NCBI GenBank assembly: GCA_001247695.2
Contig: LGRX02035338.1
Location: 24,560 to 88,559 of the forward strand
Source: Cymbomonas tetramitiformis
Lineage: Eukaryota > Chlorophyta > Pyramimonadophyceae > Pyramimonadales > Pyramimonadaceae
Reading direction: 5' to 3'
Length of the DNA: 64,000 bases
Numbering within the stretch: the stretch's first letter is position 1; every line of letters begins with the position of its first letter. Of the stretch, positions 1,612-61,756 are shown piece by piece. Under the pieces are notes generated by a model. The model made no database searches. It saw nothing but the letters and a program-made list of their open reading frames with translations, and was not told the DNA's origin. A program made the position numbers and the translations under genes.

Positions 1612-2549
1612 TGTCACAAACCGCGGCTTATCGTGTACCTTAGTCGGGTTGTGACACCTAGGACAGTAGTCCCTGTGACGAACATATGACACGCGCAGCA
1701 CAATACGCGCGAGCGGTTACAGCAGTGACAGGGTACGGAAGTACGGATGGGTGTTACATCTTATTTGGAGGTAGCAACTGTAATATGTAGGGCGGCGTAG
1801 CAGAGTGAGGCAGACGCTCATTTTTGTTTTGCCTTCGTAACAATGAGTTCCAAAAAAGGAAGTGCTTGCTCAGTCCGCGAAAACAGCAGTGTTATGATAT
1901 AGCAATTTATGATATATGGTATTCTTTTGCTTGTGAAGTTGTGGATTCTGTGGACTTGTGCTTAAATCTGGGTTGTGATAAACCCCTACCCCCCCTAGGT
2001 TTAAACCTGGGTTTAAACCTAAAATGACCCCCTCTGGTTTAAACCGGTTTGTGGTTTCACACTGTTAAGCCTAGTTTCACAATGTTAAGTCTAGTTTCAC
2101 ATTGTTAAGCATATCAAAGGGTACATGTTGTCTTTTCATTGTTAAGCATACAACAGGGGTAGACGCCATATTGAAATTCAGTCTGCTCTCTGGCAGCCGT
2201 GCGAGTAGCCGTTTGGTAATCGTACGGCGTGCTCTCTATCTCGTGTCTCGTCTCCTATTCCATACAAGGATACAAGTGACAACAGATTCTGTGCACGCGA
2301 TCAAACGATTGTACCAACGGAGTGTAAGCCGTAGGATTTATTTATCGGCCAGGTAGCATCGTCGCGTCGCTAGGTCACGTATGGCGCGTACACGCCGTAT
2401 ATCGCAACGGCTGCAATGGGGGGGAATTCTGGGGGTTTAAACCTGGGTTTAAACCTGAAATGACCCCCTCGGGTTTAAACCGGTTAACGGTTTATGCACA
2501 ACCTAGGCTTAAATATTGGCGTCAGAACTGCATACTGCAGTCTTTTACA
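1612..2549 (+). repeat. Left terminal repeat A1 of E1 (391 bp, interrupted by a 547-bp insertion)
   Basis: 1612-1967 matches 29438-29793 over exactly 356 bp with a few substitutions, and 2515-2549 matches 29794-29828. The first bases are TGTCA and the last are TTTTACA. The segment corresponds to the downstream 391 bp of the full right-hand repeat; the upstream part (B, about 220 bp) is missing at this end. The interruption is the MITE at 1968-2506 plus its target duplication. Confidence 0.9.
1968..2506. mobile_element. hAT-type non-autonomous element (MITE) in the left repeat of E1
   Basis: A 539-bp insertion interrupts the E1 repeat relative to its partner at 29438-29828. It is flanked by the 8-bp direct duplication GCTTAAAT (1960-1967 and 2507-2514). 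Its ends are inverted: it starts CTGGGTTGTGATAAACC, and the reverse complement of its end reads CTAGGTTGTGCATAAACC. The interior has repeated TTTAAACC palindromes and no ORF of note. An 8-bp duplication fits hAT elements; the family name is inference. Confidence 0.85.
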
Positions 2550-3200
2550 AAACAAAAATGTGTTTAATTACAGACATGTCGTCTGTAATTCCGAGCGTGA
2601 AGCAGCAGTCTTGAAGAACGAGGCCTTCGAAGGGTGAGGCCAGGAACGGATTTATCCGTACTGGTAAGCTTGGAGAGGTTGAGTAAAGCAGACTGTTGTG
2701 ACACTGGAGGTTCAGCAGCCATCCGAGACACAGCGACAACATTTATTTATGATATTCTGGGCTATTCTGGGAGACAGTGTCCTGATGGAGCGAAACACCG
2801 GATGGTAAAGCCAGGAACGGATTTATCCGTACTGGTACGCCTGAAGGCGTAGAGCGAAACAGGAGGTCTCAGTGTTTATCGTGGCGACAACATTTATTAT
2901 GATATTCTGGGCTATTCTGGGAGACAGTGTCCTGATGGAGCGAAGCACGGGACGGTGAAACCAGGAACGGAGTTATCCGTACTGGCAAGCCTGAGGGGGT
3001 GGAGTGAAACAGGAGTCTCATCACCTACAAGACTCATTACCTCAGGAATGAGCGAGAATGGCCTTACAGTGACTGCTGCTTAGAACGAAGCACTGGGAGG
3101 TGAAGCCAGGGACGGAATTTCCGTACCGGTAAGCTGAAAGGTGTGGAGTGAAAAGGGCTTTCACCTTGGCAACTTCCCACCACTGAGGGATTAGCGACGG
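2550..3200 (+). repeat. E1 leader with four copies of a conserved hairpin repeat
   Basis: A 24-25-nt hairpin of the form CCAG-ACGGA-loop-TCCGT-CTGG lies at 2640-2664, 2811-2835, 2961-2985 and 3106-3129. It is embedded in longer repeats of about 145-170 bp that share ATTTATGATATTCTGGGC and GGAGACAGTGTCCTGATGG. In the fourth copy the loop and part of the stem differ but the stem is retained. The position between the left repeat and gag matches a retroelement leader, so a packaging or translation signal is possible; that role is inference. Confidence 0.7.
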
Positions 3201-3262
3201 AGTCGACTACAGACCTCCAGAAGCAGCAGCGAGCCGAGAGACGTACTCAGAGAGCGGCACGT

Positions 3263-3412
3263 GTGAGCCAGCATTTTCCCGAGCTGGAAGAACAAACAAC
3301 AGCCGGCGGAGGACAGCCCGAGGCCGAAGCCCGGGAGCCTACGGTGATATTCGAAGAAGAGATGGACTACGGCGATTCCACTCGCCTTTCCCTCGGTACT
3401 CTATCTGCCCAC
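3263..3412 (+). pseudogene. E1 gag-like N-terminal fragment, cut by the MULE insertion
   Basis: The reading frame is open from about 3263 (in-frame GTG; no ATG early in the frame) and is rich in Glu, with the segment MDYGDSTRL just before the break. It is interrupted at 3413 by the Mutator-like element. The frame that continues beyond the insertion (8311 onward) is shifted relative to this one, so gag was already damaged or the true frame changes just upstream. Assignment to gag rests on position in E1 only. Confidence 0.45.
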
Positions 3413-4161
3413 GGTAGCACTTCATTTTTGTCGCGAGGTCTTTTTATTTGTCGCACCGTGCGACAAAACTGCAATTATACCGTGCGACATAAATGAGCGT
3501 TGCGCTCATTTCTGTCGCACCTGCGACGCAAACATGAGCGCAACGCTCATTTCTGTCGTGAAAATTTACAGAAAATTTTCAGATGACCAAATTTGGATGG
3601 ACAGGAAATTGCAAGGATAACAAATTATGAAAAATAAATCGGGCATAAATCTGATGACAAAAATATCTGCTTGTGAAATTTCAATCAGATACCAAGTTGA
3701 AATATTAAAGACAAACATCTTTCACGATGCAGAATTCACAAATCATTCACAATACTGAATTCACAAATCATGCACAATAAGAAAGCAAAGCAACAATAGC
3801 ATATTCAGTGGCAAGTAATACAAAATTGATAACATATTTTACAAGAGTAAAGACTGTTATTGCTACTAGCAGTATCAGATTCCAGTTACGTCACACTACT
3901 AGCAGTATCAGATTCCAGTTACGTCACACTACTAGCAGTATCAGATTCCAGTTACGTCACACTACTTGCAAGCTTCTGCGTCCCGCTTTTGCTTCATGGT
4001 CTTCGGCTTGTTTGAGGGAAAGGCACGTTCCATCATCCCAAAGATGCCAAGGCCATCACGGAGGTGGTAACCCGCCAAGATGTGCGGGCAACACTTGCAA
4101 TTCCAAAACCACTTGCAAGACGCATGCGTCTCCATCAACAAGATCGGTGGGATCGTCCACG

Positions 4162-9414: not shown

Positions 9415-10100
9415 AACCCGTGACAAATAGACCAAACCCTAATGTGATATATATATACATCCCGGCACACCCGCCCCCTCCACCGCTGTATTGGGATGCC
9501 CCACCGTCGCCGGACTATTCACCGGGCCCTACTACAGACGAGGAGGACGGGGAAGATCCCTCGCACGACGATCGAGACTTTTCAGATTTCTTCTGTGGCT
9601 CTACGAATGATTCAACCACGGCATCGACAGCTTCAATTCACGGCACTATGACTGTGCTGCGGGCTGGCACAGCAGTGCCACCGCCAACTAGTGGGGTAGT
9701 GGCTAGTAAGTTAATCATGCCGCTCCTGTACAGTGAGATTGACCGTAGCTGTATGTGCAGAGGGGTCCGATCACGGACCGATTTCAGATTTTCAACTCTT
9801 GACTGGGAACAGCCCTGCCAGAAAGGACAGGCCTTCCCTTAAAACTCACTTTCCACCGCTATAGATGGTGTTTGTTCACAGGTTTCAACTTCGGCTGGTC
9901 GGTCACCACACTAGGTGGTGTGTTGGAATAGTCACACCGCTCACTTATGTGACTCTTCCCGTAGTAGTGTTTATGACTGTCACCCGAACCTGAACCCTAA
10001 CTGTTTATGCCCGTTATATCGGGTGAACTTATCAACTTTATTACATTCTGAGAAAACCTATCACTGAGTGAATATATCCCGGGTCCTAGGGGTATATCCA
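9415..10100. other. Segment replacing the expected E1 protease/RT region
   Basis: No protease or reverse transcriptase motif is found between the gag-like ORF and RNase H, so RT has been deleted or replaced. 9411-9842 is open, Pro- and acid-rich (DEEDGEDPSHDDRDFSDFF) and unrecognised. 9400-9450 shares most bases with 43525-43570 inside E3 (GACCAAACCCTAATGTGA is common to both), so this is dispersed repeat sequence. From 9843 to 10080 only A/T-rich sequence with short inverted motifs (CACACTAGGTGGTGTG) is seen. Confidence 0.5.
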
Positions 10101-10944
10101 ACACTCTGCTCGGGGAGGTGTTTGAAGCCCATCGACTACAGCAAGCCCATCTTCCTCTACACGGACTGGAGCAACCATGGCATTGGCGCAGTGTTGGGCC
10201 AAAAGGATGAGCAAGGCGTGGAGCACGTCTACGTGGTGATCAGCCGCTCGCTGTCGAAAACTGAGAGACAGTATGCGAGCTTTCAGGGTGCAGATGCTGG
10301 CAGTGGTGTGGGCAATCCGCACTCTGCGCCAATATCTGCATGGGGTGCACTTCACGCTGGTCACCGACCACTCACCGCTCACGACCCTCATGGAGAAAGG
10401 GGACCTGCAGGGTCAACACCTGCGCTGGGCCATCAGTCTGCAAGAGTTTGAGTTCACGGTCCAGTATCGACCAGGGCCAAAGAATGAGAACGCGGACGTG
10501 CCTTCCAGGTACCCGCTGCCCAGCACAGCAGACGAGACTGGTGCCCGCCTGGACCGGGAAGGTGACTGTGCGCGGGAAGCGGGGTGCGCCGAGAGGCAGA
10601 CGCGTTGTTTCGCAGACACCATCTGCTTAGAGGTGACCAGGGAGCCACCGCTTGGCCCAGAAGCGAGCCCAGAGGCTCAAGTGGCCAACTACTGTGAGAA
10701 GATGGTCAGGGAGCAGCTGGGGACCAGTGCGGTCCACCGACTGTTTGATGTGCACTACCAAGAGGAGTTGGAGTGCAGAAGGGGTGTCATGTTTGATACT
10801 GACCACCCAGAGGTGGCCAGATGTTCCGGCAGATTGATGCGAGTCGCATGGGATGCCCTCAGCCAGGTACAGCCGGTCAGAGGCATGCATTTTGGAGGCT
10901 CTCCAGCGGTCTACAGCGACGAGACCATGGAGGTGGCAAGCTGA
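10101..10944 (+). pseudogene. E1 RNase H domain (frameshifted)
   Basis: The N-terminal half (frame of 10068-10451) reads KPIFLYTDWSNHGIGAVLGQ and SRSLSKTERQYASFQG. The C-terminal half (frame of 10273-10944) reads VVWAIRTLRQYLHGVHFTLV followed by TDHSPLTTLM and YRPGPKNENADVPSRYP. These are the hallmarks of Ty3/gypsy RNase H: a first catalytic Asp in TDWS, the ErqY-A-F helix and the TDH Asp. The frame shifts near 10270-10300. Normally RT precedes this domain; here it is absent. It would degrade the RNA strand of the RNA/DNA hybrid during reverse transcription. Confidence 0.85.
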
Positions 10945-12335
10945 GGGTGCCTAAGAAGATCGACACGAGGGTGGTCGACAGGAGCTTCTTCCAGGAAGCC
11001 AGGGAAGAAGGCGTGGTTTGCTACGAGCCCTGCGGGGGTCTGTGTGCTGGGTTGGAGATGCTCTTGCGCTGCGGCGTCAAGGTCAACAAGTACCTCTACC
11101 AGGACATCTCAGCGTCCAGCCCTACGGTGGCAAGGGCGAGGTGCATGGCGCTCAGTCGCCGACATCCTGACCTGTTTCACGCAGGGGCGGTTCACCTAGA
11201 GCAGCTGCCCAGCAACATCGAGGACACTAGCCTTGTTGACCTCGTCCAAGCAGGAGCATTGAGTGGAGGGCAGTGGGTCATGGTGTGTGGATATCCATGT
11301 CAGGACCTATCACCAGCAGGCAAGCTAGCAGGTTTGGAGGGCAAGCACAGCAGGCTGTTCTACCAGGCAGTGCGAGTCCTTTCGACGCTGCAACAGCTGC
11401 AGCCTCAGCGACCGCCAGCGTACGTGCTGGAGAACGTCTCTCCACTGTCACACCGAGAGAACTCGAAGATCAGAAAGGAGGTGTTCCCTATCATCAACAG
11501 CGTGGTGGGCCAGCCGGTATCCTTTGACGCAGCGCGCGCAGGATCATATGCGCACCGCCTACGAGCATACTGGAGTAATCTGTTCCAGAACCACCAGTTC
11601 AATCTGGTGATGGAGGGGGTGGACAGGCCACCCGACAGATACGTGAGTGACATCCTGCAACGAGGCTGGAAGCCGCGCAAGGTAGTCACTCGGGACAGGA
11701 AGCCCCACTACGCCGCTAACGTCGTGGGAGAACCCATGCGGGTGCTGCCAACCATCTTGGCGACGCAGAACTCCGGAGCCTTTCGTGCACCTCGTGCAGG
11801 TACGGTGGTAAGAAGGAAAGATGACGTTGAGGAGAAAGGGGAGACCAGAGAGGTCAACCTGGACGAGAAGGCCATTGCCATGGGGTACAGCGCAAGTGAA
11901 TTGCGCATGGCTCGGGGCATGAAAGATGAGGAGTTGGCAGGGATACTCGGTCTCGCCATGGATCGCAGGGCCATGGAGCTGCTGTATGCAGTGGCGGAGG
12001 TCAGTACGACCAAGCTGCCAAAGAGTCAGGAGAGTGAGGAGGAGGAGCATGGCGCGCTAGCTGCCATCCCCATCGTGGGGTCCGCCAAGGTGACAACCGC
12101 TTCGGAGTTGGCACCGGAGCCGGCGCAAGCGCAGCTGGCAGAGTGGGTCACCAGATCCAGTGACTACACTCAGCAAGTTGCCCGACGCCTTAGTCACCAG
12201 GACTGGGAGGAGCGACTGCAACACATGTGCAGCCAAGGGCAGAAAGGCATGCAAGGTGCAAGGACTCGGCACAGCGGATGCAGTCCCACGTCGCCGACAA
12301 TGGAAGCTTGCCTCCATGGAGCTCGCGGGCTGTAA
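10821..12335 (+). CDS. DNMT3-like cytosine-C5 DNA methyltransferase domain of E1
   Basis: The ORF is 504 aa; the true domain probably starts after about residue 44 (KKIDTR), since the first residues are a shifted reading of the preceding frame. The catalytic C5-methyltransferase series is intact: a motif I-like loop YEPCGGLCAG (residues 68-77), QDIS (94-97), motif IV GYPCQDLS (157-164) with the catalytic Cys, motif VI LENV (203-206), motif VIII HRLRAYWSN (245-253), a motif IX-like VLPTILATQ and a motif X-like C-terminal block GLAMDRRAMELLYAV. HRLRAYWSN after the motif VI block resembles the AHRARYFWGN of DNMT3 rather than the QRR of DNMT1 or bacterial enzymes. It lies between RNase H and integrase, with a frame change on each side (about 10940 and 12200-12330). 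The family is clear; methylation activity or target is not shown. Confidence 0.88.
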   Translation: MFRQIDASRMGCPQPGTAGQRHAFWRLSSGLQRRDHGGGKLRVPKKIDTRVVDRSFFQEAREEGVVCYEPCGGLCAGLEMLLRCGVKVNKYLYQDISASSPTVARARCMALSRRHPDLFHAGAVHLEQLPSNIEDTSLVDLVQAGALSGGQWVMVCGYPCQDLSPAGKLAGLEGKHSRLFYQAVRVLSTLQQLQPQRPPAYVLENVSPLSHRENSKIRKEVFPIINSVVGQPVSFDAARAGSYAHRLRAYWSNLFQNHQFNLVMEGVDRPPDRYVSDILQRGWKPRKVVTRDRKPHYAANVVGEPMRVLPTILATQNSGAFRAPRAGTVVRRKDDVEEKGETREVNLDEKAIAMGYSASELRMARGMKDEELAGILGLAMDRRAMELLYAVAEVSTTKLPKSQESEEEEHGALAAIPIVGSAKVTTASELAPEPAQAQLAEWVTRSSDYTQQVARRLSHQDWEERLQHMCSQGQKGMQGARTRHSGCSPTSPTMEACLHGARGL

Positions 12336-16421: not shown

Positions 16422-16435
16422 TTCGTGTGCGGTGC

Positions 16436-19400
16436 CTACTCCCCCAGTTCGTCGTCCGCGGTGGACTGTGCGGCCTCCAGGAAAAGGTCCAACTGCGACA
16501 GCGGCGAGAACCCGAACACCAGTTCAAATGGCGTGAAGCCAGTAGATTCACTCCTGGAGTCATTGATCGCGAATTCCACGTTAGTGGTGAACAAATCCCA
16601 GTCCTCCACATTGGCGTCTACAAAGGACCTGAGCATGTCCTCAATAACCCTGTTGCTGTGTTCCGCCTGGCCGTCAGACCGAGGGTTGTACGGCGTGGTA
16701 CGAGCCACTTTCACACCCATCAGTCTCATGAGTTCCTGCCAGAAAGCATCTTGAAACCGTGGGTCACGATCAGAGACAATCTTCATAGGCGCGCCATGTA
16801 AGCGCCACACCGAGTCAAAGTAGATTCTGGCCACCACAGCTGCGGAGCTGTCGCCGAAGTTCATCGGCACAACGTGGACCATCTTCGTCAGCTTGCAGGT
16901 GAAGGCCACGAAAGCATCATTGCCTCTCTCTGATACCGGCAGGCCGGTGACGAAGTCCACCGCGACATCCTGCCATGGCCTGTTCGGGATGCTGTGAGGG
17001 TTTAGCAACCCATCCGGGTAAGTTCCCCGCGGCCTCACTGATTGGCACACTGCGCAGGATGCAACCCAGGTGCCCACATCTTCCGCGGCACCACGCCAAT
17101 AGAAGCGTCGCAGCACCCTCTCCAGAGTCTTGTCTCGCCCAGTGTGGCCTGAGGACAATGACTCATGAGCATGGCGAATCACTACTTCCCGAAGTGGAGA
17201 GTCCTCCCCCAGCACCAACTGATATCTCCCTGCTGCGGTTCTCCAAACCACTTCTCCCACTAGCCTGAAGTCCTGTAGGCATTGGTGTGGTGCTGCCTTC
17301 ACTTTCTCTCTTAGTGAACGAAGTGTCCCCTCTCGGGTGTACTCCGCCTTCAACGCGCGCAGGAACTTTGAGTCTGACTGCTGGGAGGCTGCGTCTCTGA
17401 AGTCTGCCGCCTCACCTGTCCTTATCACAGCGGGGGCTGTTCGCGGATGCCTCACGCGTGCTGGTTGTGGTTTGGCGGGAGGGGCGTGTACTATCAGAAC
17501 AGGCCAGCGAAGGTCGAAGGCTCTCCCATCTGGGTTCTCGAAGAACTGGTTGGGCTCGCCCTTGTCATCGTGAGTAGGGATGACCTCCACAATCTGCATA
17601 TTGGCCTTTCTGAAAAGTTTGCGCCACGCGGGGAGCTTGGACTGGTGATCTGGTAGAACGAATACTGCTGAGGTGTTCTCTGGGTCTGCCTTCCATTCTG
17701 CGATATACTTGTTCAAGATCGCCTCCACAGTAATGCACTTGGAGTTGTATGGAGGGTTACACCAAACCCGAAGGCCCCTCCATTTCTCTGAAAGGCAGTC
17801 TGTCCAGAATCTATCCGCCTGTCTGTTGCGGCCGCCAAAGTCACAACAGGCGTCCACATCGAAGGGTCCAAATTTCTCGGCGTACTTCGAGGAGTACTCT
17901 GCTCGGACACGCCAATTCTGTGAGTCCTCTGGGGGAGCCCGCCGTTTCTGTGGGTGAAGGACCGGGGATGGAGTTGACTGTTGGGGCGCCTGCTGCGGGG
18001 TTGGTGAGCTCGTTGGCACCTTCTCAGTGAGCGCCTCCGATGCGTCAGCTCGTGACGTAGGCGTTCGCGTCTTCGGTGACGCCAACTGTGGAGGCGCTGG
18101 GGTCGTAGAGGCCTTCCCAGCGCGTGACATACTCCTCGTTATCCTTATCCGGGGTGGGGCTCTATCAGGGGGTTTGTGTGGAGCTTCTACCGGCTTTGCG
18201 CTATCGGCTGCAGGCCATTCAGGCATGTCGAAGTCGAGGTGATCCTCCTTCATTCCCTTATAGAGCTTCGGGTTAACAAGAGCGATGGTCTCCCCCATGT
18301 CCATGGCCTGTTCCGCCACGGAGAGGGTCTCCACTGCTGAGAGCCAACAGTCAACAGTCTGGGCCCAGTGGGGATGAGCTGCGGGTGGTGAGCTGGAGAA
18401 GTATTCAGACTCCAGCGTTGCCAGGGGGTCTTTCGGTAGATCTGAGGTGGGGTCGATCACCCCTGCCTCCTTCAACCCCTCACGCACGTCCTTGTCTTTG
18501 AAGTCGGGTCTTCTGGACAGGGCGTCCGGTACCAGCAGCAGCGCTCCTTTGATGTACTCCATTCTCGGGACTCCCACCTCCACCAGATCCATGTACCAGC
18601 GTGCCTGTCTGCGGCTAAGCTCCCTGCCAGGTTCCATCAGCCATTCAAGGGGGCGGTGATCACCCTGGATGCGGAAGTTGGTGAAGATGAGGTAATGCCG
18701 CCAGGTAACGGTGGTACAATGGTGTAGAGCACCTAGCTCACGCTCGCCGGTGTGGTAATTCTGCTCGGCGGCTGAGAACTGGCGGCTCTCGTATGCTATC
18801 ACGCGCAGTCCAAGACCATCTCCATTGTCTTGCATCGGTACTCCCCCAAGAGCGATGCCGCTAGCATCCGTCTGTACCACGAAAGGTGCCGTGCCGTCTG
18901 CGGCACCCTTAATGTTGGGCAAGGCGAGCACCGGCGCTGAGGTGAGGGCCTTCTTCAGCTCCTCGAAGGCCCACTGCTGCATGGGACCCCACTCCCAGGG
19001 TACGTCCGACTTGGTCAACCGGGTGAGGGGCTGAGCGATCTCGGAGAAGCAGTGGATGAACCTGCGGTAATACCCCGCCAGGCCCAAGAACTGCCTGACG
19101 TGGGTAACCGTTTCCAGCTCGGGCCAGTCCCTCACTGCAGCCACCTTGTCGTGTTGGGGTCTGCAGCCATCCGCGGAGATACAGTGGCCAAGGAACCGCA
19201 AGGATTTCTTCAACAGTTGGCACTTGGACCTCTTGAGGAAGACGCCCTTCTCCCTGCATGTCAGGAGCAGTTGCTTGACGTGCTCGTAGTGCTCTGCAGC
19301 GGTGTTGCTGAAGACGACCACATCATCGATGAAGATCCGGACAAATGGGAGATGGCCCAAGGCCCGCTGCATCCGTCGCTGGTACTGAGACGGTGAATTC

Positions 19401-22400
19401 TGCAGCCCCTGCGGCATGACCAACCACTCATATGACCCCATCTGGGTGGTGAAGGCGGTCTTCTCGACATCTCCTGGTGCCATCGGTACTTGCCAGAAGC
19501 CATCCACCGCGTCGAACGAAGAGAAGAACTTCGCACCCTGCATCTCGTCGAACATCATCTGGATGTCTGGGAGAGGATACTTGTCCTTAACTGTCTGGCG
19601 GTTGAGGAGCCGGTAATCGATCACCAGTCGCAGCTCCTTGGGGTTCCCAGGTTTAGGGACCATCAAACAGGGAGCTGCATAAGGGCTGGAAGAGGGTCGG
19701 ATGTAGCCCTTGGACATCAGAGTCTCCACGCGTTCTCGAAGTTGGCGGAGTTCCTCTGCAGACTTCTTGTAGATGCGCTGGCAGGGAGGCCCCTTCTTGC
19801 TCAGCTCAGGGTCCAGGTTAATGTTGGCTTCATCTTGGGGGTCATGTCTGAGTCCATCGATGTTCGGTAGGGCGGTCGTCATCTCCTTTTTGTACTCCTC
19901 ACCCCAGAAGTCCTGAAACTTGAGGGTCCACTCAGGGCTCACTTCTGCATCTTCAGTATCCGCAGCGGGTTCGGCGTTCTCAGAGTCGATGGCCGTGGCT
20001 GCAAAGGCAGAAGCGGTATCGTCGGGGGACTTCTCGGCCACCATGAGCCAGGCGGGCTGTATCTCCGGGTCGTCATTGCCGCGTAGCTTCTGCGTCTCCG
20101 CGTACACCAGGTACTTCTTCAGCTGGGCAGGGGTTAGGAACACCTCATCCACCAATCCCGCGCAGGCCGTGCCCTTCGGAGACCTGTCCCCAGATGCTTT
20201 CCCAGGAGAACAGCCTGTGATGGTGACGCGGTCCCCAATCTTACCACTGCGGGACTTCCTGAGGAAGGAGACGGAGCCATTCCCTTCATAGCCCAGAGTG
20301 ACAGGAGAGTGACTGCGCAGCCACCTTCCGCCGAGGATAACATCCACCTGTATGCCCAGTGGTAGGATCCGGAGGGCAAGGGCGTTCTCCGTATAGGTGC
20401 CCGTGGTGGTGTGCGTGTTAAACTTGGCGTACGCGGTGGCGCCAGTGATCTTCACAGATCCATCCGCCAAGGTGACTCGCATCTCGGAGCCGGCTCGTGT
20501 CGTGAGGCCACATCGCTTGGCGCTCTGCTCCGAGATGAAGTTGTCAGAGGCCCCCGAGTCGATCAGCACCTTGACCGTGTGCCCTCTGAGGGTTGCGTAG
20601 AATACCAGCAGTAGCGGTCCTTCTTCGTCATGTGCCGCTGCAAGGGTACCCTCGATGTCGGTCTTCCACTGAACTCCCCCATCTGTGCGTATGCTTTTGC
20701 ATTTGAGGTTGGGGAGGAGGTTGTCCGAGGCCTCGCGGCATTCTTCCAACGTTTGCCTACACGCGGCGTAGAACTCCTCATCCAGCAAATCAACATCTTC
20801 AGTCGGATGACTGACGAGGTTGTCTGCACTCGCCGTCAGCAGGGTGCCCGCTGAGGTGCATTCGCTCGAGGTGGGGCTGACATGAGTGGTGTCGCTGGTG
20901 GTAGGGCTCACATGGGTGGTGTCACTGGTAGTAGAGCTCACATGAGTAGTGCCACTGGTGGTGGGGCTCACATGGGTAGTGCCACTTACTGTGGGGCTCA
21001 CGTGGGTAGTGCCGCTTGTTGTGGGACTCGCATGGGTAGCGACACTATTGATGAGACTGCCATGGGTGAGGGGATCCTCGTCATGCTGAGGGCTGCCAGT
21101 AGGGGAGTTGTGGGCGAGTTGGTGGGAGCTCTGGTGGTCAGTTCTCGCCTCAGGGGTCCCAGCTGCTGCCATCTGCTGGGTGAAGCAGAGCGAATTGACC
21201 GAGGACTCCTCTTCCATCACCTCAGGGTCTTCAGCGATGGGGTGGCTGTCGAGACAGGGCGGCGCTTCATCCGCTTCGTGCGTTCTGACGGTGGTCATCT
21301 GCTGGGTGAAGCAAAGCGAACTGGGTGCGGAGGTCTCCTCCGCCTCTGAGCAGTAGGATGAACCTTCGGGGTTTCCTCCCGGAGTGGCCGGCGCGTCATC
21401 ATGGTGCGAAGATGTAGTCTCTGTTGTGGGCTCGGCCAGCGAGGATGATGGAGGGGATGCTCCCAAGGGGCTGGGACCCAGCTTCCTCATCTTGTACTGG
21501 TGTACTGCGTGCAGACTGCACCAGGCGCCAGGTAGACCCACATCTCCCGCTGTCCCAGGTATCGTGCCCACTTCAGTGTCCAGGGTGCAGAGGGATGTCG
21601 AAGATCTCGCTGCTGCTCTTCGTGCGCCCTCCTTTTCCCACAGCCTGCTACCTGGGGAAGAGTCTGGACTCGAAGTGGCGATTGCCTTTTGCTGCTCGGC
21701 GGGCGACAGCTCTCTCCAAGCCGCGTAGAGGTCGTGGGAGCTGGCGTTAGAGGGTTCGGGGACTTGCTGGTGACCGTCGTGTGAGAGGAGATGCCACAAT
21801 GCTATGCGCTGGTGGCCCTCCTTGCGATCTTGAGGTTCGCGGGCAATGCGTATCCTCTCTGCCAGCTGGTTGGCGCGGTTCACGCGCTCCTTTGGCGATC
21901 GACTCCCAGAGTGTACGCGGCTGCGGACGCGCTCCGACATTTTATCCACCAGGTCCTTGGCAGCCTCTGGGGATTTGCGCAGAGCTCTGCGGACCTTCTG
22001 CATGGCGACTTCGAGGGGGAGGGAGTACAGATCTCTCTTCCAGTGCCACGCAGTTAGCCTTTTCCGTGGGTCTGCGAGGTTGGACTGATAGATGGGCAGC
22101 GGTAGGACAACACGCGGTCGGGGGCGAAGATCGCGAGGCTCTCCGCGGTTGTTGCCCATAGTGGGGGGTCTGTGTCGGGGGGCTCGCCGTCCCCTCCGAC
22201 CCTCGATCCTTGCTTGTGTATAAGCAGGGCCGTCATCAAGAGGTAGTGACGGCTCATCGAAGGGGGTGCTTCCTGCAAGAGGGTGGCTGGACAAGTCATC
22301 CCTCGGCGGCGATGGGGCACTAGCTGAGCGGTAGGTGCGTCGCAAGCGGGTCCCAGAGGTGAAGGCCACGCTCTTGGGATGGGGGCGTTGGCCCCAAGGG

Positions 22401-22489: not shown

Positions 22490-22528
22490 TTCCTCGAAGG
22501 GCAGGGTCTGGGGCTGGCCGCCGGCCAG

Positions 22529-22531
22529 TCA
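22529..22531 (-). promoter_or_regulatory. Gag-pol UGA stop, probable readthrough site
   Basis: Gag and pol are in the same frame, separated by one TGA followed by CTG, then a GC-rich palindromic stretch GGCCGGCGGCC within 15 nt. A single leaky stop with pol downstream is how murine leukaemia virus-type elements regulate the gag:pol ratio; UGA-C is a known leaky context. No in-frame ATG lies near the start of pol, which favours readthrough over reinitiation. Confidence 0.6.
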
Positions 22532-25500
22532 TTCATCGCTCTCCACCGGGGGAAGGCCGGCGTCACCCTCCACAAGCTCGATGCCCGCAAGGGCCGCCAG
22601 GGTCTGGTAGCTCTGCTCGTCCTCACAGGTAGCAAGAGCCAAGACCTCCTCGGAGAACTCCTCTGGGACGCCATCCACCGAGGAGATGATGTCCTCCTGC
22701 TGCTCGATGGCCCAAACGACGGCGGCTACAAACCCAGGGGAGTTCGCCAGTCGAGCGGGTGCATTGGCCCTCCACTCCTTGAGTTTAGCCTCGTCCGTAC
22801 AGTTACGGACGATGTGCTCCGCAGAGCCGCAGGCGAAGCACCGGCGGACTTTCGGAGCGTCGGGGCGGGAGAGGCCAGGTGGTGGTGGCAAAGGAGTCAC
22901 TGCCGCGGCGACGGTGGTGGCAGGCCCGTTCTCCAGCATGGCAAGAGCTGGGCGGCTCGAAGAGGGGGTACGCCTGTAGAAGGGGGTGCGAGGTGGTGGG
23001 TTAGCGAAGGAAACAGCACGGGGAGGACGGTCTTGAGAGCGCCTCTGAGCCGCCTCCGTGTCAATGTCACTCTCCACCTCCTCAGCAACTTCCCGAATCT
23101 TCAACAAGGCGTTGTGGGTGCCTGGGATGTCGTCAGCAACGGCCTTCCTCTCCCACTCTTCTGGTTTGGAGACATCCAAGTGGATGGCTCTCAGGCGCCG
23201 CATCACCTTGGGTGCATATTTCAGCCCCCGGCGGTACGTAGAGAGCATCGACAGGTTGGTCATCTCCACGCAATTGGGGACTCTGCCGGCCAGGAAGTTG
23301 ACGGAGGCCATGCGGGTCTCCAGTCGCGAGAAATACTCCGCCGCGGTCTCGTTCACCGCCTGCTTCAGGGCAATGGCCTCGCCGTGTGCGTTCTCCAGGT
23401 AGGCCTGCGTCAGAGAGCACACCGCCAGATCGCTGAAGAACACGTCCAGCTCCCCGTAGCGTTGGTGCCAAGCTTGCTCGGACCCAAAGGTCCCCGCCGC
23501 GCGCTCCAAGAACTTTCTCTGCTGGTCTTGAAGAGTGTACTCCTTGAAGCTCCAAAGAAGGCTTGACACACTCGCCTGGTACTCTGATACTGATGGCGTA
23601 CAACTGGGAGTGGTCAGTGCTTCGATCACGATGGCCTCCTGGAATACCTTCCGCACCATGTGGGAGTAGTGCTCCAACTGCGTCAGGAGGCCCTCCTTGT
23701 CGGCCGATTTTGTGTCGGACGCGGAGCGGGGGAACCTGGTGACGCTCTTGACCAGCTTTAGCACCATCTCTTTGGTCTTGTGCTCCAGGCGGACCTCGTC
23801 TGGAGATGCTCGCAGGTTAGTGCCCTGCGGCAGACGGACGATGCCTGGAACAAAGGGGGTGGCGCTGGGAGAGAGCACGGGGTTCGCAGCGGCGGCAGAG
23901 TGAACGGGGTTCGCGGCAGCGGCAAGTGAACGGGGAATGGGGAAACGGGCAGGAGGTGGTGGTCCCGGGGCATGCGCGGGCGGAGGCGCAGGCGCGGGAT
24001 TTGTGGGGACTGCGGTCGGAGTGGGCGGTAATGTAGGGGCTGATGGTGGTGCGGGGAGTGGGAGAGGTGTATGGAAGGGCAGGGGTGTGGATGGTTGTGC
24101 GGCCACCACGCTCATGCTCCGGTACCAATCGGAGTTGCTGACCTCCGACCACGCGGCGAGCCCGTCCTGATCGAAGTTCTGCATCTCCGACTCCCGCGCA
24201 GTAGCAGGGATCCACTCCCACACTGGCTGCCCCATGCTGGTAGACCGCACATTGGCCGCGGCTGGGTCCCCCATTGCCATATCCATGACCTCGCGGTCGA
24301 CCATGAGGACCCAGGTCTCCACACGAGGGTTGGTAAGGGGTAGGGGTGCATGGTGTAGCCGGCCCCCCATGCGCGCATATGCAGTCAGCGGCGCTCCCAG
24401 CAGGTGCATGATCCTGAACAAGATGGCGTCGCCCTGCACCCCAGCCCGGCGGCGTTCGTCCCATGGTAGGGAGACGGTTGCCGCGCCTCGCACCCCAGCT
24501 GACTGGTGCACCCACAATGACCCACCATCGTGGGTGACGAAGAGGGCTCTGACCTCTGGGTACTGAGGGTAGGAGGGCTCTGGTGCGGGATCGTCAGGGG
24601 GATCCTGAGGTGGATCACTAGGGGGGCCTGGTGGCGAGTCGCTTGGACTGGAGTCTCTGGGCTCTGAGTCGGGATTGCCACCGCCGTGCACCACCGTCTC
24701 CATCGACTGCCGCCGGCGGGCCACCATCATGTTATGGGGATTTGGCCGGCCCTGGGTGGGAGGTTCGGCGGGAGCGGTCTCAGCGGCGGTCTGAGGCACT
24801 GGAGGGGTTACGCTGGCGACGGCGTCTGCCTCGTGTAGATGGTCCGCCGTCAGGCCCTGTGCGCTGCCCTGAGGGTCGCCTGGTGGGGAGGCTCCTGCCG
24901 ATGCCGTCGCACCAGGCAGCGCGAGTCCTCTCGAGAGCACCGCGGAGATGTCCAGGGCCTGTACTGCCGCCAGGACTTCTCTGCGAATGTGTTCACTTCG
25001 GCTGCTCGCGTCCGAGTCGGAGCCGGACCTGTGGGCGGCCCTCCGCCTGCGCTCAGCCCGTGCCTGCGTGCTTCGGCTGCCTCTGGTCCCCGTGCTGGTG
25101 CGGCTGATGTCCGTACCGGAGTCGGGGTCAGAGTGATCAGGTGCGTGGCTTGGGCCTGGAAGATGCTTGCCATGTGTCGCAGGGCCCGAAGATGCCCTTC
25201 GGGAACGCCGACGCCGGCGAGTCTCTGAGGTTGTCGCCACCGCGGGAAGGTGACGCACCAAGAGCTGGGTACCGCCCAAGACGTTCTGCTGAACCCCGCT
25301 GTCAAGGGGTACCTGCAGAGGGTCCGGCAGGGCCGCGGCGCCGATGCTGATGAAGTGCTGCAGCGATGAGGGATCCGCGCCTGAGTCATGAAGCGCGGAG
25401 GTGGCTGGTGCCAGCTGATGGGGCTGCTGTGGTCGATGTTGCGGCTGTTGTGGCGGCTGCGGTTGCTGTTGCTGCTGCTGCTGCTGCTGCTGCTGTTGCT

Positions 25501-25951
25501 GCTGTAGCTGCTGCTGCTGTAACTGCTGCTGCTGTAACTGCTGCTGCATCGGTTCCAGTGGCTGCTGTTGAAGCCACTGCTGTTGCTGCTGCTGGTACGC
25601 GAGCCACTGCTGCTGCTGCTGTAGCTGTTGTTGGAACGGTGTGGGATATGCGCCCACGGGGTGATGGGTTCCCAGTGTGAACGGCACTGGTGATACTCCC
25701 CCAGCGAGGGGCGCTGATTGGGGCAATACCCAATTGACGCCGTTCCATACAGCCTGTGCGGGGGTGCCATCCGGCATAGTATAAGGGCGGGGCACCGCTG
25801 TGTAGGGCATGGTGGTGCCTGGATGTGGAATGGGGTGAGCGGAAGCGTAAGCGGCGGGCGATGGGAAGGTGAGGGGCGAGAACAATGGGGGGCGTGACGG
25901 CTCTGCACTGACCCCCATGCTGGGAAAGGACTCTGATATATGTTGCGACAT
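22529..25951 (-). CDS. gag: E2 gag polyprotein
   Basis: About 1140 aa from the first ATG in frame (25951, MSQHISESFPSMG). A Gln-rich tract encoded by CAG repeats covers roughly 25450-25640. A Ser/Arg- and Pro-rich middle follows, then a capsid-like region (SVTRFPRSASDTK, TAAEYFSRLETRM) and a CCHC zinc knuckle CFACGSAEHIVRNC (CX2CX4HX4C), normal for a nucleocapsid. The ORF ends in TGA at 22529-22531 and the pol frame continues in the same phase immediately after, so pol is probably made by readthrough. Gag would package element RNA in cytoplasmic particles. Confidence 0.9.
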   Translation of the reverse strand: MSQHISESFPSMGVSAEPSRPPLFSPLTFPSPAAYASAHPIPHPGTTMPYTAVPRPYTMPDGTPAQAVWNGVNWVLPQSAPLAGGVSPVPFTLGTHHPVGAYPTPFQQQLQQQQQWLAYQQQQQQWLQQQPLEPMQQQLQQQQLQQQQLQQQQQQQQQQQQQQPQPPQQPQHRPQQPHQLAPATSALHDSGADPSSLQHFISIGAAALPDPLQVPLDSGVQQNVLGGTQLLVRHLPAVATTSETRRRRRSRRASSGPATHGKHLPGPSHAPDHSDPDSGTDISRTSTGTRGSRSTQARAERRRRAAHRSGSDSDASSRSEHIRREVLAAVQALDISAVLSRGLALPGATASAGASPPGDPQGSAQGLTADHLHEADAVASVTPPVPQTAAETAPAEPPTQGRPNPHNMMVARRRQSMETVVHGGGNPDSEPRDSSPSDSPPGPPSDPPQDPPDDPAPEPSYPQYPEVRALFVTHDGGSLWVHQSAGVRGAATVSLPWDERRRAGVQGDAILFRIMHLLGAPLTAYARMGGRLHHAPLPLTNPRVETWVLMVDREVMDMAMGDPAAANVRSTSMGQPVWEWIPATARESEMQNFDQDGLAAWSEVSNSDWYRSMSVVAAQPSTPLPFHTPLPLPAPPSAPTLPPTPTAVPTNPAPAPPPAHAPGPPPPARFPIPRSLAAAANPVHSAAAANPVLSPSATPFVPGIVRLPQGTNLRASPDEVRLEHKTKEMVLKLVKSVTRFPRSASDTKSADKEGLLTQLEHYSHMVRKVFQEAIVIEALTTPSCTPSVSEYQASVSSLLWSFKEYTLQDQQRKFLERAAGTFGSEQAWHQRYGELDVFFSDLAVCSLTQAYLENAHGEAIALKQAVNETAAEYFSRLETRMASVNFLAGRVPNCVEMTNLSMLSTYRRGLKYAPKVMRRLRAIHLDVSKPEEWERKAVADDIPGTHNALLKIREVAEEVESDIDTEAAQRRSQDRPPRAVSFANPPPRTPFYRRTPSSSRPALAMLENGPATTVAAAVTPLPPPPGLSRPDAPKVRRCFACGSAEHIVRNCTDEAKLKEWRANAPARLANSPGFVAAVVWAIEQQEDIISSVDGVPEEFSEEVLALATCEDEQSYQTLAALAGIELVEGDAGLPPVESDE

Positions 25952-25993
25952 ACTGGCTGCTGAGCTGATCAGATCGCACACTGGGTGTGGCAA

Positions 25994-27182
25994 AAGCCAC
26001 AGGTGAGCAGAAGGTAGGAAGTGCTCGCCTTTATTTATTCAGTGTCGCTTTCGTGAGGGGGGGAAGGAGGAGGTGAAGGTGTAGGGCTGACTTCTGGAGA
26101 CGGTGGAGCGTCGGCCAAGGTTTCACCAGGAAGCACCGGTATTGCTGGGTGGTAAGGGTCCGGGTAGTTGAAGACAAAACCCGTGAACCCCTGGTAGTAC
26201 CACTCACGGTAGTGGCGCGCTGGTGGGATAGCCAGGGTGTATGCTGTCCAGGCGCTCAGTTGTCTTCCACCTCGTCGTCTGAAGAGGAGGGTGAAGGTGG
26301 GAGGGGGCCCTCTGGGGAGTTATCGAAGGCTCCTGCTGGTGGGAAGGTGGGGTCTGGTTGAAATAACCACTTGAGGGGTCCCTGTTTCCACCACTCTCTT
26401 CTGTGCTTTTGTGGGGAAACTGCCATACACTGGCGTACTCAAAATTTCGCCAGGGCTCCGCGACACAGATTTCAAGTGCCTAAGTATGCAGGCAGAGGTC
26501 AAGAAACTGCAACCAGAAAGCTCAGCAAGGTCCCAGAAGGTAACCGGACTTCGTACACTCCAGAAATATTCCAGCCAGAGAGTAAACCAGAGGTGTCCAG
26601 AAACTGTCCAGGAACTGTCCAGAAACCACTAAAAGCGCTGTTTTGAGTGGCTTTCCCAACTGCTGGTGGCCGTGAGGGCGGTATTGAGGGGTTCTAGGCT
26701 GTCCTATGGGGTCTGGGGATAGAGTTTTTGGTGGTGGGGGCTACTGTGGAAGGTTTTGGGGTAGGCTGAAAACGGGCTAAAACGGCTATTTTGGGCTGTT
26801 TTTGGCTGTTTTTCGCCTTTTTAAGGCTCTAGAAAGTGAGTTATGAGGTTTTCCTGGCTACTATAAACCGGGGAAAGCCTTTAGGGTGCTCCCTGACGGT
26901 TGTTTGTAGCCTGGGGCAGACTTGGAGTTTAAGATCGGAAAACGAATCTTGACTTTTCTGAGCCTGGTTGGGCCCCCACTGTTAAGGGAACGTTATACTG
27001 ATGTTTTGTGACTTTTGGGAGCAGTATATGGATTCCTTCTTTGAAAAAAAATGGCTTTTCTGACGTAAAAGTTGCGCAAAGTTTCCCAAAAGTATGAGTC
27101 TCCCCCCGCAGTATAACGGAAGTTACGGTAACGCCGTGGTTGAACGCGCGGAGGTGTTCAAGTAACGCTCATTGATACCAAT
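25994..27182 (-). other. E2 5' leader between LTR and gag
   Basis: No gene is supported. The stretch 26100-26360 is open in places on both strands but has no recognisable motif. 26640-26830 is G/T-rich with repeated GGCTGTTTTTGG-like units. On the minus strand it lies between the 5' LTR (27183-27874) and gag, so it is the untranslated leader. A primer-binding site next to the LTR (near 27182) was not identified with confidence. Confidence 0.55.
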
Positions 27183-27874
27183 TGTGCCTGGGGCACTACG
27201 ACAGATGCTCGGAAATATGTTTTTGATTGAACGTGCAAAGGTACACAATTCGGATTTTATAATATACTGGATCAGGGCCAGATTGAGGTACAAACGATAA
27301 TTCGGTTCCGAGTTCTGAAGGCTAAACACTTCTCAAGTGCTCTACTTATTCACTCGTCACTCAGGTTGCAGGGTCAACCACTCGAGAGCCGATGTCACAC
27401 TTCGGCTCAACGTTCAGTTCCCGATCCGATCTCATTTCTAATTCCGATTCATCATTCTCGATTCAGATGTTATGCCGACAGGCTGACACGATGACTGCCC
27501 CACAGTACTGTCATACTACTGTACTGTCATACTGTCATACTGTCATAGCGTCATACTGTCATACTGTCATAACCTTAATATCTGATATTCGATTTCATTG
27601 TCTTTTCAACCCCGATGCGAATCTGACCATTCTTCGAGGGTCTGACTGAGTTCCACGATGACACCCCCCACAGTACTGTCATACTACTATAGTGTCATAG
27701 TGTCATACTGTCATAGTGTCATAGTGTCATACTGTCATACCCCGGACATCTGGTATTCATTCTCATCGTGATTTCAAGCCCAATTTCACTGTCATCGTGC
27801 CAATCCCAGATTACCCCCGATGACACACATACAGACGCATAGGCATATCGGCTCACGCTGTGCCTCCGGGCACA
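27183..27874 (-). repeat. E2 5' LTR (692 bp)
   Basis: Partner of 14039-14730, same length, TGTGCC...GGCACA ends. On the minus strand it would carry the promoter and transcription start of E2. The GTCATACT tracts are the same as in the other copy. Confidence 0.95.
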
Positions 27875-27879
27875 GCAGC

Positions 27880-28534: not shown

Positions 28535-28542
28535 AGCCCAAG

Positions 28543-29180
28543 TAAAGATTGCCAGTCAGCTGGACTGGGGCTTGGAACTGGTGATGACGGTTCCTCAAGA
28601 AGTTAGACGCCTGGCGCACGAGGTGAGTTGGAAGAAGATCGTACAGGTCTGGGACCCGTGGGCTGGTACAGGTGTGATTGGCAAGGTGATGGCACTGGAG
28701 TGGCCTCACTTGAAGTTCATGAACAACGATTGGAATCCGCAGTTGAAATGGCCTGAAGCCCTCAATGCACTACAGCCGGGCAACTATCGTGCTTGGAAGG
28801 AGAAGTATGGAGTATGTGATGCGGTGATAACCTCACCTTGGTTCGCCGTACTGGATATTGCATTGCCATTGGCAGTGCTGGCCCGCAGAGTGGTGGCTTG
28901 CATTCACGTGCCATCGCACTATATGACAGACATGACAGAGAGCAGGGCGCAATACTTTCGCAAACTGTGTCATGCTGGACGCTTGCATGTGATTGGACAC
29001 TTGGAGCATGGGCCCATAGGTAGAAGATGTATGTGGGTGATGGTGTTTCAAAACCCTTTGACGCGAGCAAGGATGCTACGAGGAGGAGAAGCCACTGGAG
29101 TGGGTATGTTTACTTTCAGCATGGGCAAGTTCGCGCTGGATGGTGCTACAACAGAAGATGTTGAACAAGCTCTTATCTAA
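28543..29180 (+). CDS. SAM-dependent methyltransferase-like domain at the E1 C-terminus
   Basis: In frame with the preceding E1 segment once the MITE is set aside; an internal ATG lies at 28572 and the stop at 29178-29180. From that ATG (202 aa), residues 24-30 are motif I DPWAGTG, 48-51 NDWN, and 80-86 AVITSPWF, matching the motif I then (D/N/S)PP(Y/F/W) order of amino-group DNA/RNA methyltransferases, with the second Pro replaced by Trp. Then follow DIALPLAVLARRVVACIHVP and a conserved-looking GPIGRRCMWVMVFQ strand. It has no target-recognition domain. Substrate is unknown; DNA N6/N4 is the simplest inference. Confidence 0.7.
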
Positions 29181-29205
29181 TGTCTGTGCTACCAGTGGCA
29201 GCTAC

Positions 29206-29215
29206 AGATGGGGGA
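29206..29215 (+). promoter_or_regulatory. Polypurine tract of E1
   Basis: The purine-rich run AGATGGGGGA abuts the start of the full right-hand repeat (TGTTGATGAG at 29216). This is where plus-strand priming is expected, and it supports 29216 as the LTR start. Confidence 0.6.
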
Positions 29216-29828
29216 TGTTGATGAGAAAAAGAGCTTGTATAGGAAGCTAAAGGCAGTTATCAAAAATTTTGAACTTTTGTGTGGTTACAGTAAGAGGTTT
29301 ACTGCACAGTGACATAAGACAATGTATATAGTACCGAGCTGGTGTTATGGGGATACTGACAATAAGTAAGACTGTTTGGTAGTAGGACTAGATAGTCGTG
29401 CTTCATAAGGACACGTCGTGCATAAGTTCGCGACAGCTGTCATAAACCGCGGCTTGTCGTGTACCTTAGTCGGGTCGTGACACCTGGGACAGTAGTCCCT
29501 GTGACGAACATATGACACGCGCAGCACAATACGCGCGAGCGGTTACAGCAGTGACAGGGTACGGAAGTACGGATGGGTGTTACATCTTATTTGGAGGTAG
29601 CAACTGTAATATGTAGGGCGGCGTAGCAGAGTGAGGCGGACGCTCATTTTTGTTTTGCCTTCGTAACCGTGAGTTCCAAAAAAGGAAGTGCTTGCTCAGA
29701 CCGCGAAAACAACAGTGTTATGATATAGCAATTTATGATATATGGTATTCTTTTGCTTGTGAAGTTGTGGATTCTGTGGACTTGTGCTTAAATATTGGCG
29801 TCAGAACTGCATACTGCAGTATTTTACA
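29216..29828 (+). repeat. Full right-hand terminal repeat of E1 (B1 + A2, 613 bp)
   Basis: B1 (29216-29435, starts TGTTGATGAG and ends GCGACA), two bases GC, then A2 (29438-29828, starts TGTCATAAACC and ends TTTTACA). A2 matches the left repeat A1 and B1 matches 29829-30053. The B1/A2 join is the palindrome GACAGCTGTC. Confidence 0.85.
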
Positions 29829-30053
29829 TGTTGAGAAAAAGAGCTTGTATAGGAAGCTAAAGGCAGTTATCAAATTTTTTGAACTTTTGTGTGGTTACAA
29901 TAAGAGGTTTACTGCACAGTGACATAAGACAATGACACAATGTATATAGTACCGAGTTGGTGTTATAGGGACACTGACAATAAGTAAGACTGTTTGGTAG
30001 TAGGACTAGATAGTCGTGCTTCATAAGGACACGTCGTGCATAAGTTCGCGACA
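29829..30053 (+). repeat. Partial terminal repeat B2 of E1 (225 bp)
   Basis: Direct repeat of 29216-29435 (one 3-bp deletion, one 8-bp insertion and a few substitutions), ending at the same GCGACA. It follows A2 with no gap. 30054-30401 beyond it shows no gene, only short repeats of GATCAGAAAACCTC/GATCGGAAAACCTC. Confidence 0.85.
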
Positions 30054-61739: not shown

Positions 61740-61756
61740 CTGGGACAAGACGAAAC

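What the first reader, a model, noticed from the sequence alone, without database searches (positions are those of the whole stretch)
1612..30053. Two nested, opposite retroelements each carry a C5 methyltransferase, an amino-group-type methyltransferase and a histone reader
E1 has a DNMT3-like enzyme, a DPWAGTG/SPWF methyltransferase-like domain and a PHD finger. E2 has a phage-type C5 enzyme, a Dam-like NPPY enzyme and a chromodomain. The domains are of different families and sit at different places in pol, so the same three-part kit seems to have been assembled twice. C5 methyltransferases in retrotransposons have been reported for dinoflagellates and Klebsormidium; I do not know of a description of both methylation types plus a reader in one element. 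It may be a self-methylation system that hides or marks new copies.
Basis: partly seen in the sequence, partly recalled or inferred. Interest (0 to 1): 0.95.

Follow-up and report, generated by a model that had tools for sequence, protein, structure and literature searches.

The report
Algal retrotransposons carrying two DNA methyltransferases
Two nested retrotransposons in a green alga each encode two different predicted DNA-methylating enzymes and a predicted histone-reading domain, a kit that recurs in other copies and, at least in part, in relatives from elsewhere, and that would likely let a new copy write its own chromatin marks.

Summary
Confirmed. The window is from Cymbomonas tetramitiformis. 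E1 (1612-30053, +) is a decayed Ty3/gypsy-type element interrupted by a young LTR element, E2 (14039-27874, -; TSD GCAGC; LTRs 99.6% identical). E1: RNase H - DNMT3-like C5 - integrase - PHD - [E2] - TaqI-like methyltransferase fold. E2: PR-RT-RNase H - Dam - integrase - chromodomain - phage-type C5. The C5 and amino-type slots are swapped.

These are not chance captures. Of 14 E2-like loci fetched through their Dam, 13 also carry chromodomain and C5. E1's kit fills an uninterrupted 2,398-aa frame in both sister copies read; 31 of 150 scored places have such a frame. All domains show dN/dS below 0.25. Among 59 non-Cymbomonas proteins with the E1-type C5 (four from Haematococcus, 55 unnamed), 56 match a PHD pattern and 33 the second methyltransferase domain. 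C5 catalytic residues are near-invariant. E1's and E2's C5 share no BLASTP similarity, so two assemblies are likely.

DNMTs in Gypsy, DIRS and LINE elements and Dam in DIRS are published; ten searches showed no element with both plus a reader. Self-methylation of new copies is the likeliest role, untested. E1's second methyltransferase has an atypical motif IV (SPWF) and may be inactive.

The parts
1612..1967 (+). E1 terminal repeat A1 (5' end, begins TGTC; TCAA target duplication at 1608-1611)
   Evidence: 97.5% identical to 29438-29793; ends read
10068..10490 (+). E1 RNase H, split over two frames (RT upstream of it is missing in this copy)
   Evidence: RT_RNaseH_2 1.5e-14 in 10068-10448; RT_RNaseH 2.7e-15 in ORF 10240-10944
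10803..12335 (+). E1 ORF with DNMT3-like C5 cytosine methyltransferase (motifs PCQ, ENV, RLRAYW; domain about 10983-12032)
   Evidence: PF00145 1.2e-10; best PDB matches DNMT3A, 8.8e-5; motif conservation
12703..13200 (+). E1 integrase: H2C2 zinc finger and rve core
   Evidence: H2C2 2.4e-16, rve 4.1e-7
13825..13959 (+). E1 PHD finger
   Evidence: PF00628 4.2e-10
14034..14038 (.). E2 target-site duplication GCAGC, left copy (inside E1's ORF, between PHD and the second methyltransferase domain)
14039..14730 (-). E2 LTR (3' LTR in element orientation)
   Evidence: 99.57% identical to 27183-27874
15000..15602 (-). E2 phage-type C5 cytosine methyltransferase (SPPC, ENP)
   Evidence: phrog_757 6.7e-17 over residues 308-508 of ORF 14919-16523; invariant motifs in 12 relatives
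15828..15989 (-). E2 chromodomain
   Evidence: PF00385 2.2e-7
16682..17200 (-). E2 integrase: H2C2 and rve core
   Evidence: H2C2 4.6e-17, rve 5.2e-5
17519..18043 (-). E2 Dam-type adenine methyltransferase region (NPPY), between RNase H and integrase
   Evidence: PF05869 5.8e-7 at 17720-17932; phrog_111 8.7e-11
18581..18892 (-). E2 RNase H
   Evidence: RT_RNaseH 1.9e-25
19184..19660 (-). E2 reverse transcriptase
   Evidence: RVT_1 1.4e-31
20327..20596 (-). E2 aspartic protease
   Evidence: Asp_protease_2 1.9e-10
22529..26038 (-). E2 gag-like ORF, 1169 aa, with a weak CCHC knuckle
   Evidence: zf-CCHC 0.0058, 17.1 bits against a 20.8 cut-off
27183..27874 (-). E2 LTR (5' LTR); tRNA-primer-like site just inside it, polypurine tract inside the other LTR
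   Evidence: primer-site match to initiator tRNA judged by eye from memory
27875..27879 (.). E2 target-site duplication GCAGC, right copy
28536..29180 (+). E1 second methyltransferase-like domain (DPWAGTG, SPWF)
   Evidence: fold matches; 31 homologues; dN/dS 0.035
29219..29435 (+). E1 repeat B1 (ends GACA; followed by GC and A2)
   Evidence: 93.3% identical to 29829-30053
29438..29793 (+). E1 repeat A2
29829..30053 (+). E1 repeat B2 (3' end, GACA; TCAA at 30054-30057)

Best explanation
These are two unrelated Ty3/gypsy-type retrotransposon families that each encode, within pol, a predicted C5 cytosine DNA methyltransferase, a second predicted methyltransferase of amino type and a predicted histone reader, and they most likely use them to write DNA marks on their own new copies. 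Shown: the domains, their order, their recurrence in other copies and their conservation. Published nanopore work on other prasinophytes finds 5mC in gene bodies replaced by 6mA in the first nucleosomes of active genes (PMC12695648, passages), so an element carrying both writers would be able to place both host marks. For E1 the second enzyme may be catalytically altered or inactive and act as a nucleic-acid-binding partner.
For: Domains. Recurrence in E2-like loci: 13 of 14 with chromodomain and C5 in order, in one frame with Dam in 12 of those 13. Recurrence of E1 kit: complete in both sister copies read; 31 of 150 scored places lie in an uninterrupted 2,395-2,402-aa frame. Purifying selection: E1 against L030 dN/dS C5 0.057, PHD 0.048, second domain 0.035, integrase 0.079; E2 sister family (13 copies, 78 pairs) Dam 0.236, C5 0.151, SH3-chromodomain 0.109, RT 0.131, integrase 0.121. 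Other sources: 59 of 76 E1-type C5 proteins are not labelled Cymbomonas, four of them from Haematococcus lacustris; 56 of 59 match a PHD pattern and 33 of 59 the second-domain profile. Catalytic residues: Cys 71 of 72 rows, EN 74 of 74, motif VIII Arg 75 of 75; E2-type C5 Cys and ENP invariant in 12 of 12. Precedent: dinoflagellate retrotransposon DNMT3 domains methylate CG in yeast (PMC5890265, passages).
Against: No methylation, expression or biochemical data for these elements. E1's second domain has SPWF instead of an NPPY-type motif; relatives show further decay, including the one Haematococcus protein that has the domain. 26 of 59 non-Cymbomonas and 10 of 17 Cymbomonas-group proteins gave no match to the second-domain profile (many may be truncated models). 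The structure model of the E2 Dam region found no PDB match at E <= 0.001. Dam shows the weakest constraint of the E2 domains (0.236). CpG transitions are only 1.79 times other C/G transitions in the E2 sister family (pair range 0.95-2.71) and CpG o/e is 0.74 in E2 against 0.92 in the rest of the window, a weak footprint. One E2-like locus (L027) is rearranged and lacks integrase and chromodomain hits.
Confidence: 0.5

Rival explanations
1. The methyltransferases act on host chromatin or on competing DNA (other mobile elements, DNA viruses) rather than on the element's own copies, giving the host a benefit that keeps the element.
For: An antiviral role for transposon-encoded Dam/Dcm is argued in PMC6338049 (section part read). 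The Cymbomonas assembly holds many endogenous viral elements (PMC10675990, passages).
Against: The enzymes sit inside pol in both families and are conserved element by element, which fits use during the element's own cycle; no host-fitness evidence.
Confidence: 0.15
2. The domains are kept for nucleic-acid or chromatin binding, packaging or integration-site choice, and methylation is incidental or lost.
For: E1's second domain has a changed motif IV, degenerate in many relatives.
Against: The catalytic Cys and other motif residues of both C5 domains are near-invariant down to about 31-32% identity, and NPPY is kept in E2's Dam.
Confidence: 0.2
3. Chance captures or assembly artefacts at this one locus.
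For: E1 here is decayed and E2's pol changes frame in this copy.
Against: Target duplications, 99.6% LTR identity, many copies, other taxa.
Confidence: 0.02
4. The two families did not assemble their kits independently: one exchanged modules with the other, or both drew on a shared pool of retroelement-borne methyltransferases.
For: E2's Dam groups with the Dam of DIRS-like elements of the same genome (26 of 26 rows, support 0.97, against phage Dam), so it probably came from another retroelement.
Against: E1 and E2 C5 share no BLASTP similarity; RT-RNase H are 30% and integrase 26% identical; readers differ (PHD, chromodomain).
Confidence: 0.2

Closest known systems
KnitGypsy-Dnmt3 of Klebsormidium nitens (PMC5890265; passages read)
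   Same: Gypsy element with a DNMT3-type domain in pol and DIRS-like repeat ends; C5 under purifying selection
   Different: The passages and term counts I saw mention no second methyltransferase, PHD or chromodomain for it (0 occurrences of PHD or chromodomain in the text). Sequence relationship to E1 was not tested.
SymbioDIRS-Dnmt3 and SymbioLINE-Dnmt of Symbiodinium (PMC5890265; passages)
   Same: Retrotransposon-encoded DNMT; DIRS-type DNMT3 shown to methylate CG in yeast
   Different: DIRS or LINE architecture, one methyltransferase type, no reader mentioned in the passages seen
DIRS1-like retrotransposons with RT-RNase H-methyltransferase pol (PMC3266345; passages)
   Same: Dam-type domain directly after RNase H, as in E2; Cymbomonas has DIRS-like elements with related Dam
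   Different: Tyrosine recombinase instead of integrase; no C5, no chromodomain
Chromodomain Ty3/gypsy elements (chromoviruses), including Chlamyvir-related ones noted in Cymbomonas (PMC10675990; passages)
   Same: E2 has RT-RNase H-integrase-SH3-chromodomain
   Different: E2 adds Dam before integrase and C5 after the chromodomain
High-coverage Cymbomonas scaffolds with chromodomain, RNase H and cytosine methyltransferase homology (PMC5741210; passage)
   Same: Very probably the same repeats, noticed in 2015
   Different: Not described as elements, no amino-type methyltransferase mentioned in the passages seen

Membership tests
Ty3/gypsy retrotransposons (E2) | LTRs, target duplication, PR-RT-RNase H-integrase order | tested here: met
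Ty3/gypsy retrotransposons (E1) | RT-RNase H-integrase order with DDE-type integrase | tested here: met
   sister copy L030: RVT_1, RNase H, H2C2, rve in order (rve 29.8 bits, under the 32.6 cut-off); the window copy lacks RT
Ty3/gypsy retrotransposons (E1) | plain LTRs at both ends | tested here: not met
   B1-GC-A2-B2 at the 3' end in the window and in L029 and L030 (L029's B2 is cut by its contig end); 5' end with A1 only seen in the window alone
Chromoviruses (E2) | chromodomain downstream of integrase | tested here: met
   PF00385 2.2e-7 after integrase and SH3_Tf2-1
DIRS elements | tyrosine recombinase | tested here: not met
   E1 and E2 carry H2C2/rve integrase; no recombinase family in the ORFs scanned
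KnitGypsy-Dnmt3 kind (E1) | DNMT3-type C5 inside Gypsy pol with DIRS-like repeat ends | tested here: met
KnitGypsy-Dnmt3 kind (E1) | common descent with the Klebsormidium element | not tested
   no Klebsormidium-named protein in the 76 rows
C5 cytosine methyltransferases | motif IV PC, motif VI EN, motif VIII R | tested here: met
   E1: all three. E2: PC and ENP; its motif VIII is the phage-type K-x-T form, not an R-x-R
PF05869 Dam (E2) | profile score over curated cut-off with NPP[YF] | tested here: met
   29.8 against 28.1 bits, NPPY
Amino-group DNA methyltransferases (E1 second domain) | [DNS]PP[YFW] catalytic motif | tested here: not met
   SPWF in E1; SPPF only in P0126, P0143, P0144
Amino-group DNA methyltransferases (E1 second domain) | AdoMet methyltransferase fold nearest to adenine-N6 enzymes | tested here: inconclusive
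Any DNA methyltransferase | catalytic activity on DNA | not testable with these tools
   needs biochemistry

The most novel reading that the evidence does not exclude
Algal Ty3/gypsy elements twice evolved a self-contained writer-writer-reader module, with the two writer slots swapped, that writes both host DNA marks (5mC and 6mA) on the nascent copy and so lets a retrotransposon choose the chromatin state it is born into.
Probability: 0.3. Interest if true: 0.93.

Novelty: new variant of a known kind. Interest (0 to 1): 0.8.

Why it matters
DNA methylation is normally the host's weapon against retrotransposons. Elements that carry their own C5 enzyme were already a puzzle; here two families carry two enzyme types and a reader, in large copy number and under selection, in an alga that can be cultured and read by nanopore. 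That makes a direct test possible of why a retrotransposon would methylate DNA, and of whether mobile elements are a source of host methylation enzymes.

Tried and rejected
Chance capture or artefact: rejected. Family searches for E1's second domain: no Pfam, PHROG or NCBIfam family. DNA-pattern scans with its alignment found no relative in bacterial and archaeal genomes (27 pattern matches, none confirmed) or viral contigs (9, none confirmed), so its donor is unknown. Phage-type origin of E2's C5: nine viral loci confirmed at 27-36% identity, consistent but no tree was built. Dam tree: 108 loci with a hit; L007 was left out by hand as a duplicate of L009 and rows filling under 60% of columns were dropped (L027 among them), no DIRS from other hosts included, midpoint rooting. 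Structure of the E2 Dam region: pLDDT 69, no useful PDB match. VIA-align lists no non-methyltransferase class I looked for; absence there proves nothing. CpG footprint: weak, and prasinophytes with high 5mC are reported to be CpG-rich (PMC12695648), so it is not diagnostic. Genome-wide counts of E1 C5, of E2's LTR and of E2's C5 were not obtained. First-look candidate numbers (7257 for PF05869; 3200 for E1's second domain; 6837 for PF00145) are unscored and are not copy numbers; 150, 150 and 123 were scored. In one search two unnamed EukProt proteins (P0088, P0128) were counted with the 15 CYMTET ones as Cymbomonas by assumption. Literature: ten searches in an open-access library only; eight papers were seen as passages, one of these (PMC6338049) also as one section part.
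Full report
Source. Homologues of E1's second domain are named CYMTET (Cymbomonas tetramitiformis). The assembly holding the window has 851.7 Mb in 25,745 contigs; the published nanopore assembly of this green alga is 914.3 Mb with 15.3% LTR elements (PMC10675990, passages).

The nest. E2 is a complete-looking LTR element on the minus strand: LTRs of 692 bp, 99.57% identical, TGTGCC...GGGCACA ends, GCAGC duplicated at both sides, a polypurine run inside one LTR and a primer-like site inside the other. It sits inside E1's open frame between the PHD finger and the second methyltransferase domain; sister copy L030 is colinear across that point. E1's ends are A1 (1612-1967) and B1-GC-A2-B2 (29219-30053), with TCAA on both sides. 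The same GACA-GC-TGTC junction is in L029 and L030. The published Klebsormidium KnitGypsy-Dnmt3 is also said to have DIRS-like repeats around Gypsy domains (PMC5890265, figure legend), so E1 is probably of that kind. E1 in the window is dead: the stretch that encodes RT in L030 has no match in the window's first 31 kb.

The domains. E1-family pol in L030 is one frame of 2,398 aa: RT, RNase H, C5, H2C2, rve, PHD by Pfam, then the second methyltransferase domain. E1's C5 finds DNMT3A as best solved relative (8.8e-5). E2 has protease, RT, RNase H, Dam, H2C2, rve, SH3_Tf2-1, chromodomain and C5. Thus E1 places C5 between RNase H and integrase and the amino-type domain at the C-terminus, and E2 the reverse. 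The two C5 domains give no BLASTP similarity, while the shared RT-RNase H (30%) and integrase (26%) regions do. Independent assembly is therefore the better reading; module exchange is not excluded.

Recurrence. One search scored 150 of 7,257 first-look places for Dam, all 150 over cut-off. From these I fetched 19 places (20 stretches), mostly those with long frames. Fourteen are E2-like by RT; 13 of 14 carry Dam, integrase, SH3-chromodomain and C5 in E2's order, and L027 is rearranged. In 12 of the 13, one frame holds Dam and the C5 cysteine motif; L013 is the exception. The other five fetched places (L023-L026, L028) gave only the Dam among the E1 and E2 query domains; L024 has RT plus Dam. 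L003 shows RT, Dam and weak tyrosine-recombinase matches, so it is DIRS-like. For E1's second domain, 150 of 3,200 first-look places were scored, 4 of the 150 with a stop inside the match, 31 of the 150 in a frame of 2,395-2,402 aa; two of those were read and both have all four E1 domains.

Selection. Nei-Gojobori dN/dS (my script), E1 against L030: C5 0.057, integrase 0.079, PHD 0.048, second domain 0.035. Between L029 and L030 the second domain has no amino-acid change at dS 0.123. In 13 E2-like copies (78 pairs): PR 0.043, RT 0.131, RNase H 0.034, Dam 0.236, integrase 0.121, SH3-chromodomain 0.109, C5 0.151, no stops in these pieces. The choice of long frames biases the last point. E2 against its sister family is saturated at silent sites for most domains.

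Other organisms. A search with the E1-type C5 found 76 proteins: 15 CYMTET, two unnamed EukProt, four Haematococcus lacustris and 55 without organism name. Of these 59 non-Cymbomonas proteins, 56 match a PHD pattern and 33 the second-domain profile at E <= 1e-3 (some weak). Only one of four Haematococcus proteins has that domain, with degenerate motifs. Across rows with a letter, the catalytic cysteine is kept in 71 of 72, EN in 74 of 74 and the motif VIII arginines in 75 of 75. For E2's C5, 49 proteins were found; 26 carry a precomputed chromodomain. Many come without organism name from JGI or ENA, at 31-76% identity or higher. P0047 (EukProt) has Dam, integrase, chromodomain and C5 in one protein. 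The unnamed P0042 begins with a stretch matching the tail of E2's Dam (48% over 42 aa), so Dam probably precedes integrase there too.

Origin of E2's Dam. In a tree with viral-contig Dam sequences, all 26 Cymbomonas retroelement rows kept (E2, its sister family and the other Dam loci including L003) form one group with support 0.97. Since DIRS pol also has the methyltransferase after RNase H (PMC3266345, passages), E2's Dam was probably taken from a DIRS-like element.

Function. A DNMT3 domain of a dinoflagellate DIRS element methylates CG in yeast, and those authors propose that cDNA is methylated so as not to be recognised as foreign (PMC5890265, passages). In the prasinophytes Micromonas and Ostreococcus 5mC marks gene bodies and 6mA replaces it in the first nucleosomes of active genes (PMC12695648, passages). 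An element with both writers and a reader could place both marks. This is inference. The only footprint I could compute is weak: CpG transitions 1.79 times other C/G transitions (range over pairs 0.95-2.71).

Prior art. DNMT in Gypsy, DIRS and LINE, and Dam in DIRS, are published. A perspective speaks of Dam- and Dcm-encoding Ty3/Gypsy and DIRS elements together, also in green algae, without describing both in one element in the part I read (PMC6338049). In 2015 three Cymbomonas scaffolds of over 10,000-fold coverage were noted with homology to a chromodomain, RNase H and a cytosine methyltransferase (PMC5741210, passage). Ten searches showed me no element with a C5 enzyme, an amino-type methyltransferase and a histone reader together. 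The library is open-access only.

Verdict. The elements are a new variant of a known kind; the role in self-marking is the best reading but unproven.

Noticed in passing
window 58787-59728 (-), inside inverted arms 54457-56107 / 58515-60135: A third methyltransferase-like ORF (N6_N4_Mtase 2.1e-5, just under cut-off) lies in one arm of a 1.65-kb inverted repeat (84.8%); the other arm holds a broken counterpart. Weak similarity to a phage adenine methyltransferase (28.5%). Unrelated to E1/E2.
   Followed up: partly
window 35808-36310 and 48183-48684: Direct repeats of about 500 bp, 97% identical, 12.4 kb apart: probably another LTR element; of its ORFs only 45589-46461 and the edge-overlapping 35213-35857 were scanned, without a Pfam match.
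   Followed up: partly
window 29406-29465; L030 7931-7995; L029 7976-8040: The internal B1-A2 junction of E1-family ends is a perfect palindrome, GACAGCTGTC, identical in three copies, resembling an LTR-LTR circle junction.
   Followed up: no
L027 5112-5348 (-): In one E2-like locus a C5 fragment (39% over 82 aa) lies on the opposite strand right after the Dam, with no integrase hit: a rearranged copy or another element.
   Followed up: no
P0078: An unnamed EukProt gene model joins E2-type C5 sequence to an N6_N4_Mtase (PF01555) stretch, perhaps a chimeric model, perhaps a further methyltransferase combination.
   Followed up: no
window 61731-62266 and 63717-64000; 7332-8008: Tandem arrays of 67 bp, about 70 bp and about 152 bp.
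   Followed up: no
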